Virus record (IMG/VR): IMGVR_UViG_3300023099_000120
Location: 1-51,168 of that record
DNA: 51,168 nt
Source of the DNA: a virus
Direction: 5' to 3' (one strand)
Part shown: positions 7,525 through 13,211 of the stretch, piece after piece
Layout: each line of letters begins with the position of its first letter
Position numbering within the stretch: position 1 is the stretch's first letter
Translations under genes and position numbers: made by a program
Notes under the pieces: model-generated
Told to the model about the DNA's origin: nothing
Database searches by the model: none
The model's input: only the letters and a program-made list of their open reading frames with translations

Positions 7525-8265
7525 ATGGCTGATGATAAACTAGATTACTTCAAGCTTATGCGTGATTTTTGGGAGTTTGCTTTTAAAAACCCTGAAAGTA
7601 TAAAGCCAAACCATTGTGCTGTGTATGCCTATGCTGTAGAACACTGTAATCGTTTAGGATGGAAAGAGAAGTTTGGCTTTCCAACCTCAATGGTTTTAGA
7701 TTATGTTGGAATTAAAAGCTACTCAGTTTATAAAAAAACCTTTGACGATTTGGTTCAATTTGGTTTTTTCGAAGTAATAGAATATAGCAAAAATCAGTAT
7801 TCAGCCAACATAATTGCTTTGAAAGAAAATAACAAAGCACCTATCAAAGCACATGCGAAAGCAACCCCAAAAAATGAAGAATGCTTTGAAAGAAAATTAC
7901 AAAGCACATGCGAAAGCACCTATCAAAGCACCTTACAAAGCACGGAGAGTATAATAAAACAAGAAAACAATATAAAACCTTTAAAACCTCTTTCTAAAAA
8001 TGAAATTTTCGGAAATGAAGTTTTAGAAATGCCAAGTTGGGTTGAAGCCATTTCGATGCAAAACAAAATTAGACCCGAAGATGTTAAAAAATGGATTGAT
8101 GAATTTGTTTTGAAACTAGTTTCTGAATGTGACGAAAAACAAACCAAACAAGATTTTGCCGGACATTTTTCCCGGTGGCTTCCAGGAGAAATTTTAAAAT
8201 CAAAAAAAGTAAACAAAGATGGAAACACAAAAGGCACGGGAGGATTTACTAAAAATAGGGGGTAA
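7525..8265 (+). CDS. Replication initiator, lambda-O-like, with origin inside the gene
   Basis: A 246-residue protein likely to be the phage replication initiator. Residues 1-95 (YFKLMRDFWEFAFKNP, VYAYAVEHCNRLGW, FPTSMVLDYVGIKSYSVYKK) look like a winged-helix domain as in O/DnaD-type initiators. Residues 100-145 are a low-complexity linker coded by the iteron array at 7815-7943. The C-terminal 80 residues are helical (RPEDVKKWIDEFVLKL) and would contact the loader. The next gene encodes a DnaC-like ATPase and overlaps it by 47 bases. The assignment rests on domain look, iterons and neighbours, not on a database hit. Confidence 0.7.
   Translation: MADDKLDYFKLMRDFWEFAFKNPESIKPNHCAVYAYAVEHCNRLGWKEKFGFPTSMVLDYVGIKSYSVYKKTFDDLVQFGFFEVIEYSKNQYSANIIALKENNKAPIKAHAKATPKNEECFERKLQSTCESTYQSTLQSTESIIKQENNIKPLKPLSKNEIFGNEVLEMPSWVEAISMQNKIRPEDVKKWIDEFVLKLVSECDEKQTKQDFAGHFSRWLPGEILKSKKVNKDGNTKGTGGFTKNRG
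7815..7943 (+). repeat. Iteron array, candidate phage replication origin
   Basis: Repeats of the unit SAAAGCAC start at 7833, 7845, 7857 (cluster 1) and 7900, 7912, 7924, 7936 (cluster 2), always 12 bp apart; degenerate units GAAAGAAA precede each cluster at 7821 and 7888. An inverted copy, GCTTTG, opens each cluster. The 26-bp stretch 7815-7840 recurs at 7882-7907 with one mismatch. A very A-rich stretch (about 7948-8030) follows, suitable as an unwinding element. The two clusters are read in different codon frames, so the repeat is conserved as DNA. Confidence 0.75.
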
Positions 8266-9088
8266 ATTAATTCCGATAATTGGAATTCACAAATACAACG
8301 AGTTAAAAAGCTTCAGTAGTGATAAATTAACCGAAGATCAAAAAAGTCAAATTGCTGCATACGAATCCAAAAACGTAGAAGCTACTGACGAACAATTAGC
8401 ATTTAGAGCAAAATGGGTTCAAATCGTTCATAGCCCTAAATCAAAACCAAAGTTTTCAATTACTGCACGAAAGCTTTACAATCTTTTCAAGGCAAATTTT
8501 CAAAAAATATGTGAAAGGCCGTTTATCAAAATTGAGGGTGTTACGATAAAAAACTTAGAGCCATTGATTTATTATTTTTCAAAAGATGAGCGCTTCTTCC
8601 AATGTGAAAATTTATCGAGAATTTCCGAACCAAGTTTTGATAAAGGACTTTTGATAATTGGAAATTATGGAAACGGGAAAACGTCAGCGATGAAAGTTTT
8701 TGAACATATTTTTAAAGGCATTCCCGGAGTCGGATTTAGAAGTTTTTCTGCAAACGAAGCAGTCACAATGTTTGAAAAATTATCAAGTGATGTCGACCGG
8801 GATAATTTTGAAAAGATCATGTGGCGTGGAATTATAAACTTCGATGATTTAAAAACAGAACGTATCGCCAGCAATTATGGTAAGGTTAATATTTTCAAAG
8901 AGATCCTCGAAGAGAGATATCGCCTTAAATCAAAAACATTCCTGATTTGTAACTTCAAAGAAGGCTATGAAGATGATCTGCAAGCTGCAATTGATGAAAT
9001 CGGCGAAAAGTACGGTGGCCGGGTTTGGGATAGGATTTATGAAATGTTCAACATTATCGAATTCAAAGGTAAATCCTTTCGAAAATAA
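8219..9088 (+). CDS. DnaC/IstB-like AAA+ ATPase, helicase loader
   Basis: A 289-residue AAA+ protein. Walker A GNYGNGKT spans 148-155, Walker B INFDD ends at D209-D210, and an arginine-finger-like GGRVWDRIYEMFN is near the C-terminus, as in DnaC and phage loaders. Residues 1-140 are a separate helical N-terminal region that would bind the replicative helicase. No phage DnaB was found in the window, so it should load the host DnaB at the origin inside the upstream gene. It overlaps that gene by 47 bases, which supports coupled expression. Confidence 0.85.
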   Translation: METQKAREDLLKIGGKLIPIIGIHKYNELKSFSSDKLTEDQKSQIAAYESKNVEATDEQLAFRAKWVQIVHSPKSKPKFSITARKLYNLFKANFQKICERPFIKIEGVTIKNLEPLIYYFSKDERFFQCENLSRISEPSFDKGLLIIGNYGNGKTSAMKVFEHIFKGIPGVGFRSFSANEAVTMFEKLSSDVDRDNFEKIMWRGIINFDDLKTERIASNYGKVNIFKEILEERYRLKSKTFLICNFKEGYEDDLQAAIDEIGEKYGGRVWDRIYEMFNIIEFKGKSFRK

Positions 9089-12095: not shown

Positions 12096-13211
12096 ATGAA
12101 CTTCATTCTAAATAGTAAAAATTTACTCGACAAGCTATTAATTCTAAACGGAGTTATCAATTCGTCAAATACGCTTCCAATTCTGGATTGCTTTTTATTT
12201 GAAATCGATGGAAATCAATTAAAAATTACAGCCTCAGACTTAGAAACTACTATTACTTCAACGCTTGAAATTACCTCATCAGACAAAGGATCAATTGCGG
12301 TACCATCCCGAATGCTGATCGATATACTAAAAGCTTTCCCGGAACAGCCGCTTGATTTTTTTGTCAATGAAAATAGCACGATCGATATTAATTCCGGCGC
12401 TGGAGTTTATTCGATAGCTTATGCACTTGCAAAAGAGTATCCGCAAGCTGTACTAATCGAAGATCCTCAAACCGCAACGATCAATTCTAAAATTTTAGGA
12501 AAGGCGATCACTAAAACAATTTTCGCAACTGGTACCGATGATTTAAGACCGGCCATGAGCGGAGTGTTATTTCAATTTTCGCCTTTGGGATTAAATTTTG
12601 TTGCGACTGATGCGCATAAATTGGTAAAATACCAAAGATCCGATATTACATCTGCAGAGGAAATTGATTTCATTGTTCCTAAGAAACCTCTGAATGTTCT
12701 AAAAGGAATTCTCTCGACATTGGATATCGATGTTTTAATTTCCTTTAATCAGACAAATGCAATTTTCACTTTTGAAGATTATGTTTTAATGTGTCGTTTA
12801 GTTGATGCCACTTATCCAAAATATGAAAACGTAATACCAAAGGATAATCCAAACAAGGCAATTATTGACAGATCTAAACTTTTAAGTTCCGTTAAGTGTG
12901 TTTCTATTTTTGCAAACAAAACAACAAAACAAGTTGCGTTGAACTTCACTGGCAATGAAATTAATCTTTCTTCTGAAGATGTGGACTATTCTAACAAGGC
13001 AGATGAGCGCCTAAATTGTAATTACGAAGGTCAAGATACTAAAATCGGTTTCAATGCGAAATACCTCGCTGAAATGATCAGCAATTTAAGTTCAGAAGAA
13101 ATCAAATTCGAATTTTCTTTACCAAATCGAGCTGCGATTTTAACTCCGATTGATGATCAGGATGATCAAGAGAAGATCCTGATGTTAATTATGCCGTCAT
13201 TAATAAACTAA
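12096..13211 (+). CDS. dnaN: DNA polymerase III beta subunit (sliding clamp)
   Basis: A 371-residue bacterial-type sliding clamp, close to the usual length (about 370). Three repeated clamp domains can be traced: residues 1-120 with KLLILNGVINSSNTLPILD and ASDLETTI; 125-245 with TDDLRPAMSGVLFQF and VATDAHKLVKY; 250-371 ending in EKILMLIMPSL, like the terminal VMPMRL motif of DnaN. It would dimerise round DNA and hold polymerase and partners. No DNA polymerase gene is present, so the clamp probably works with host Pol III or with phage proteins carrying clamp motifs. A strong terminator follows. Confidence 0.92.
   Translation: MNFILNSKNLLDKLLILNGVINSSNTLPILDCFLFEIDGNQLKITASDLETTITSTLEITSSDKGSIAVPSRMLIDILKAFPEQPLDFFVNENSTIDINSGAGVYSIAYALAKEYPQAVLIEDPQTATINSKILGKAITKTIFATGTDDLRPAMSGVLFQFSPLGLNFVATDAHKLVKYQRSDITSAEEIDFIVPKKPLNVLKGILSTLDIDVLISFNQTNAIFTFEDYVLMCRLVDATYPKYENVIPKDNPNKAIIDRSKLLSSVKCVSIFANKTTKQVALNFTGNEINLSSEDVDYSNKADERLNCNYEGQDTKIGFNAKYLAEMISNLSSEEIKFEFSLPNRAAILTPIDDQDDQEKILMLIMPSLIN

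What the first reader, a model, noticed from the sequence alone, without database searches (positions are those of the whole stretch)
7815..7943. Phased iterons inside the initiator gene, read in two codon frames
Units SAAAGCAC recur every 12 bp in two clusters. Cluster 1 is read as xxC AAA GCA C (Lys-Ala), cluster 2 as CAA AGC AC (Gln-Ser), because the clusters are 67 bp apart, not a multiple of three. The DNA repeat is kept while the protein sequence is not, so selection is on DNA. Each cluster starts with an inverted GCTTTG, and an A-rich stretch follows. This is the lambda-O style of origin inside the initiator gene, in a Bacteroidota phage.
Basis: partly seen in the sequence, partly recalled or inferred. 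Interest (0 to 1): 0.75.

Follow-up and report, generated by a model that had tools for sequence, protein, structure and literature searches.

The report
Phage replication origin inside its initiator
This phage gene very probably encodes the protein that starts phage DNA copying and also carries, in its own middle, the repeated DNA sites that protein binds; hundreds of related phages of Bacteroidota keep these sites although different copies are read in different codon frames.

Summary
The repeat is real and non-random. Seven (C/G)AAAGCA units stand at 12-bp steps in two clusters 67 bp apart, inside a 246-aa gene directly upstream of a DnaC-like helicase loader. The window alone cannot prove selection on DNA, because cluster 2 looks like a recent out-of-frame copy of cluster 1. 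The family does. In 132 non-redundant homologues the N-terminal winged helix is followed by the same array in all three codon frames (K-A, then K-H/K-Q, then (Q/E)-S), with exactly two 11-bp steps in 104 of 132. Codon choice follows the DNA: Lys is AAA in one frame, AAG in another. Units exceed a synonymous-codon null 376 to 50. Unit triplets occur 433 times inside these genes, never in flanking DNA. C-terminal domains and downstream replication genes are swapped while N-domain and array stay together. Two profile-confirmed distant relatives keep a 12-bp in-gene array with other motifs. Best reading: the initiator's own iterons plus an AT-rich stretch, an origin built like those in lambda O, SPP1 gene 38 and pSK41 rep. 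Lambda's iterons are also read in three frames, so the principle is known; the Bacteroidota family and its three-phase layout appear undescribed. Binding and origin activity are inferred, not shown.

The parts
7525..8265 (+). Initiator gene, 246 aa: winged-helix N-domain, linker that carries the array, helical C-domain with DUF7833 (PF25200) at residues 171-219
   Evidence: ORF; Pfam; AlphaFold model
7525..7830 (+). N-terminal winged helix-turn-helix domain, the proposed array binder (residues 1-102)
   Evidence: AlphaFold pLDDT 91.8 for residues 1-98; homologues with 54-98% identity
7815..7821 (-). Inverted box 1, TGCTTTG, 18 bp before the first unit; shared by one clade only
7833..7863 (+). 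Cluster 1: units at 7833, 7845, 7857, read as Lys-Ala (phase A)
7815..7839 (+). First copy of the 25-bp repeat (24/25 identical to 7882-7906), offset 67 bp
7882..7906 (+). Second copy of the 25-bp repeat, read in another codon frame (CFERKLQS instead of IALKENNKA)
7882..7888 (-). Inverted box 2, TGCTTTG, 18 bp before cluster 2
7900..7943 (+). Cluster 2: units at 7900, 7912, 7924, 7936, read as (Gln/Glu)-Ser-Thr (phase C)
7944..8030 (+). AT-rich stretch (77% A+T, A-rich on the + strand), proposed DNA unwinding element
   Evidence: family average AT peak just after the array
7831..7983 (+). Region coding for the low-confidence linker, residues 103-153, which coincides with array plus start of the AT-rich stretch
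   Evidence: pLDDT below 50
8219..9088 (+). DnaC-like helicase loader, overlapping the end of the initiator gene
   Evidence: PHROG phrog_50 E 8e-12, phrog_3277 E 1e-10

Best explanation
The array is the set of binding sites (iterons) of the protein encoded by the same gene, and with the AT-rich stretch behind it forms the phage's replication origin. The N-terminal winged helix would bind the AAAGCA units head to tail as a nucleoprotein complex, strain the AT-rich stretch open, and the C-terminal domain would bring in the helicase loader (here the next gene; a primase-helicase in many relatives). Shown here: the array, its conservation at DNA level in three codon frames, its restriction to this gene, its linkage to the N-domain but not to the C-domain, and replication genes downstream. 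Inferred: binding by the N-domain, unwinding and origin firing. The DNA code sits in the linker because the linker's amino acids matter little. 12-bp steps let units be gained or lost without shifting the reading frame, which would also explain why the two 11-bp steps persist: removing one alone would shift the frame of the C-domain.
For: Frame-independent conservation: 376 units against 50 (sd 7) from synonymous codons in 82 genes, and each of the three frames exceeds its null. Lys in K-A is AAA in 223/226, Lys in K-H/K-Q is AAG in 146/192 (background 20%), Ser in (Q/E)S is AGC in 176/212 (background 15%). Layout A-B-C with exactly two 11-bp steps in 104/132 genes, in 37/49 held-out genes, against 5.7% in synonymous shuffles. 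Unit triplets: 433 inside, 0 outside in 746 kb. Database-wide DNA pattern: 109 of 120 stretches with 12/11 spacing lie just behind an N-domain homologue, 0 of 11 with 13/10 spacing. N-domains similar in 100% of pairs, C-domains in 7%. Downstream genes: a cluster of 59/125 whose tested member is a primase-helicase, and one of 17/125 whose tested member is a DnaC-like loader. Linker pLDDT below 50 exactly over the array. Distant relatives keep a 12-bp in-gene array with another motif and hit replication-initiation PHROGs.
Against: No binding, footprint or depth data. A self-binding array could serve repression only. The winged-helix fold is generic: RepA initiators tie with Fur and LexA. GC skew does not mark an origin. 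Homologues share ancestry, so gene counts are not independent events. The null uses pooled codon usage.
Confidence: 0.8

Rival explanations
1. The array is bound by the protein but acts mainly as an autoregulatory or transcriptional roadblock site, with the true origin elsewhere.
For: Winged helices with the fold of repressors; in-gene sites can act on transcription; no direct origin evidence here.
Against: No units near a promoter or anywhere else in 746 kb; an AT-rich stretch follows the array in the family average; downstream genes are replicative; lambda, SPP1 and pSK41 with the same anatomy are proven origins (PMC7466680, PMC6316719, PMC5703833).
Confidence: 0.12
2. Protein-level repeat: the linker peptide (KALD, QST units) is what is selected and the DNA repeat is a by-product of codon use or slippage.
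For: Phase A and phase C give peptide repeats; slippage adds 12-bp units easily; in the single-frame distant relatives protein and DNA repeats cannot be separated.
Against: The same DNA core is kept in three frames with unrelated peptides; Lys codons flip AAA to AAG as the DNA core demands; 376 units against 50 under synonymous recoding; linker predicted disordered.
Confidence: 0.04
3. Recent tandem duplication only: the window's two clusters are alike because 67 bp was copied, with no function.
For: 7815-7839 and 7882-7906 are 24/25 identical and even linker bases are shared between clusters.
Against: The array predates the copy: L041 (89% identical N-domain) has the standard A-B-C layout and all 132 homologues keep units.
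Confidence: 0.04

Closest known systems
Lambda O / ori-lambda (lambdoid phages)
   Same: Iterons and an adjacent AT-rich region in the middle of the initiator gene, replication partner gene P directly downstream (PMC7466680). The four lambda iterons start in codon frames 0, 2, 2, 1 at steps 20, 24, 23, so reading in all three frames is not new.
   Different: Lambda has 18-bp iterons with partial dyad symmetry and 20-24 bp steps; here the core is a 6-7 bp asymmetric unit at 11/12-bp steps, 5-10 copies. No N-domain matched Pfam's lambda O family.
SPP1 gp38 / oriL
   Same: Origin-binding protein whose direct repeats and AT-rich element lie inside its own gene 38, with helicase loader gp39 (PMC6316719).
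   Different: SPP1 also has a second, distant origin oriR; no second array was found in this window. Repeat sequences were not compared here.
pSK41 Rep (RepA_N plasmids)
   Same: Winged-helix N-domain binds Rep boxes in the centre of its own gene; the linker they encode is dispensable; the C-domain contacts the replication machinery; pPR9 shows the N-domain plus origin swapped as a module (PMC5703833). Same N-domain, array, C-domain order and modularity here.
   Different: Plasmids of Firmicutes; four Rep boxes; no RepA_N match in 50 N-domains; fold similarity no better than other winged helices.
PHROG phrog_23776 (unknown function) and initiation families phrog_18020, 428, 270, 186
   Same: N-domains match phrog_23776 (28/50) and O-like phrog_18020 (12/50) weakly; a distant Riemerella phage relative matches phrog_23776, 428, 186 and 270 strongly.
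   Different: These profiles describe proteins only; no in-gene array is recorded with them.

Membership tests
Phage origin inside its initiator gene (lambda O / SPP1 gp38 type) | Array of direct repeats inside the initiator coding sequence | tested here: met
Phage origin inside its initiator gene (lambda O / SPP1 gp38 type) | AT-rich element next to the repeats | tested here: met
   77% A+T at 7944-8030 against 66%; family mean rises to 74-76% after the array. Modest contrast in an AT-rich genome
Phage origin inside its initiator gene (lambda O / SPP1 gp38 type) | Helicase loader or replicative helicase gene adjacent | tested here: met
   DnaC-like loader next door; primase-helicase or loader downstream in relatives
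Phage origin inside its initiator gene (lambda O / SPP1 gp38 type) | The gene product binds the repeats and replication starts there | not testable with these tools
   Needs binding assay and depth profiling
Lambda O protein family | Sequence homology of the N-domain to lambda O | tested here: inconclusive
   No lambda O Pfam match in 50 N-domains, but 12/50 match the O-like PHROG phrog_18020, best E 1.2e-5
RepA_N plasmid initiators | RepA_N domain (PF06970) | tested here: not met
   No RepA_N match in 50 N-domains at E up to 1
RepA_N plasmid initiators | RepA-type winged-helix fold | tested here: inconclusive
   4pql, 4pt7, 5kbj at Z 7.3-7.8, tied with Fur, PerR and LexA

The most novel reading that the evidence does not exclude
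Bacteroidota phages hold a large, undescribed class of self-contained initiator-origin cassettes: a winged helix plus a 12-bp-period in-gene array whose motif changes as the winged helix diverges (AAAGCA here, GAYACRGTTYTT in Riemerella phages, AGTAAYCAAAHY in one Bacteroidota genome). In the AAAGCA branch two fixed 11-bp steps divide the array into three helical sub-blocks with a structural role in building the initiator complex.
Probability: 0.25. Interest if true: 0.65.

Novelty: new variant of a known kind. Interest (0 to 1): 0.52.

Why it matters
It gives a testable origin and initiator for a very large group of phages of Bacteroidota, for which the literature searches here found no in-gene iteron origin. 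It is also an unusually clean natural case of one DNA code kept through three codon frames, with the same amino acid using different codons as the DNA demands. The cassette could serve to build replicating vectors for Flavobacterium and its relatives, and the swap of C-domains and downstream genes behind a constant N-domain and array shows how origin recognition and machinery recruitment are exchanged between phages.

Tried and rejected
The PDB sequence search found nothing; fold search gave only generic winged helices. BLASTing C-domains into clusters chained most of them together, so pairwise similarity was used instead. The SPP1 record was not available under the accession tried, so its repeats were not compared by frame. 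No match in the plasmid collection. Literature searches for iterons in phages of Bacteroidota found none; the library is open-access only. Considered and rejected: a pure protein repeat, and a functionless duplication (see rivals). Only the smaller gene set of 82 was used for the codon and synonymous tests. A fourth motif (AAAGTNNACCCT in L327) was set aside as support because its N-domain was not confirmed by profile comparison, only by a PHROG match.

Full report
What is there. The gene at 7525-8265 encodes 246 aa and overlaps a DnaC-like helicase loader at 8219-9088 in a phage early region with RecT, a NinB/Orf-like protein, a helicase, a RuvC-like resolvase and a DNA polymerase beta clamp. 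Seven (C/G)AAAGCA units stand at 12-bp steps: 7833, 7845, 7857 and 7900, 7912, 7924, 7936. The first cluster is read Lys-Ala, the second (Gln/Glu)-Ser. The record is a 51,168-base virus record.

The window alone is not enough. 7815-7839 and 7882-7906 are 24/25 identical, and linker bases between units are shared across the clusters. A recent 67-bp out-of-frame copy would give the two-frame pattern without selection. L041, with an 89% identical N-domain, has the ordinary array, so the window's layout is a derived one.

The family. Scans of IMG/VR and GTDB genomes with the N-domain gave 191 loci, from Flavobacterium, Chryseobacterium, Lutibacter, Cecembia, Pedobacter, Winogradskyella, Bacteroidales bins and the isolated Polaribacter phages Danklef. 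One scan alone counted 449 relatives. In 132 non-redundant genes the array sits at the same place behind the N-domain. Its units run through the three codon frames in fixed order: A (AAA GCA, Lys-Ala), B (xxA AAG CAx, Lys-His/Gln), C (xAA AGC Axx, Gln/Glu-Ser). Between phases the step is 11 bp, otherwise 12. Exactly two 11-bp steps occur in 104 of 132 genes, and in 37 of 49 genes fetched after the rule was set, against 5.7% of synonymous shuffles. No gene lost the units fully; 127 of 132 keep four or more exact copies. A simple tree of N-domains needs at least 32, 26 and 50 changes of unit number in phases A, B and C, so units come and go while the layout stays (counts include scoring noise).

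Selection on DNA. With synonymous codons redrawn from pooled usage, 82 genes should hold 50 (sd 7) units; they hold 376, and every frame is in excess: 177 against 23, 77 against 7, 122 against 20. Lysine is AAA in 223 of 226 Lys-Ala pairs but AAG in 146 of 192 Lys-His/Gln pairs, where the background for AAG is 20%; serine is AGC in 176 of 212 against 15%; alanine is GCA in 223 of 226 against 40%. Triplets of units at 11/12-bp spacing occur 433 times inside the initiator genes and never in the other DNA of the same loci, 746 kb in all.

Modules. All pairs of N-domains are similar, but only 7% of pairs of C-domains. The following gene falls into clusters: one of 59/125 whose tested member is a primase-helicase, one of 17/125 whose tested member is a DnaC-like loader, and two whose tested members are of unknown function. 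One relative ends in Phg_2220_C, a conserved phage C-terminus. The model of the window protein has a confident winged helix (pLDDT 91.8 alone), a linker with pLDDT below 50 at residues 103-153, exactly the array and the start of the AT-rich stretch, and a helical C-domain. The 20 bp after the last unit average 74% and the next 20 bp 76% A+T against a locus mean of 67%, with A much more common than T on the coding strand.

Distant relatives. A Riemerella phage protein (profile probability 97.9%, E 6e-13 to the window family) has in the same place a 12-bp array of another motif, GAYACRGTTYTT, followed by an A-rich stretch, and matches replication-initiation PHROGs with E down to 5e-16. A protein in a Bacteroidota genome (probability 95.5%, E 1e-8) has AGTAAYCAAAHY repeats and a helicase-loader-like P-loop ATPase next door. 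So the period, place and context outlive the motif, as expected if a diverging winged helix takes its binding sites with it. In these two cases the repeats stay in one frame, so DNA and protein repeats cannot be told apart there.

Mechanism. The most likely reading is an initiator that binds its own gene, opens the AT-rich stretch and hands the origin to a loader or helicase through its C-domain. The DNA facts and the linkage are shown; binding, unwinding and origin use are inferred. The 11-bp steps may be structural or simply frozen: a change of one step alone would shift the reading frame of the C-domain, while 12-bp units can be gained and lost freely. Arrays without 11-bp steps exist (window, L046, L052), so the steps are not indispensable.

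Known parallels. Lambda O, SPP1 gene 38 and pSK41 rep all place the origin inside the initiator gene, and pSK41/pPR9 show the same modularity (PMC7466680, PMC6316719, PMC5703833). Lambda's four iterons start in codon frames 0, 2, 2 and 1, so iterons read in several frames are not new. New here are the family, the short 11/12-bp units, the fixed three-phase order and its breadth in Bacteroidota phages. No literature on it was found in the open-access library.

Noticed in passing
L216, minus strand near 8589 (of 9918); L213 near 8164, L236 near 1001, L289 near 5423: Other initiator-like phage proteins without a detected relation to this N-domain carry in-gene arrays of AAAGCA-type units (e.g. 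KSTTESTMKAQSKHNEST, SKSKTKSKTKSK). In-gene arrays may be commoner than this family.
   Followed up: partly
L324:2799-2880 (Riemerella phage vB_RanS_PT33): 12-bp array of GAYACRGTTYTT inside a distant relative of the initiator; the annotated gene start (2705) would cut off the winged helix, so the annotation is probably wrong.
   Followed up: yes
OQ791282.1 (Shigella phage Henu10), hit H21: A record named a Shigella phage carries the Riemerella-phage type initiator at the same coordinates as Riemerella phage PT15 (ON933637.1); the host label may be wrong.
   Followed up: no
window 12096-13211: The phage encodes its own DNA polymerase III beta clamp with all three Pfam domains.
   Followed up: no
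window 7831-7943 against L001: The linker bases between units (CATGCG, CCTATC, CCTTAC) occur in different order in close relatives, which suggests shuffling or gene conversion among units across codon frames.
   Followed up: partly
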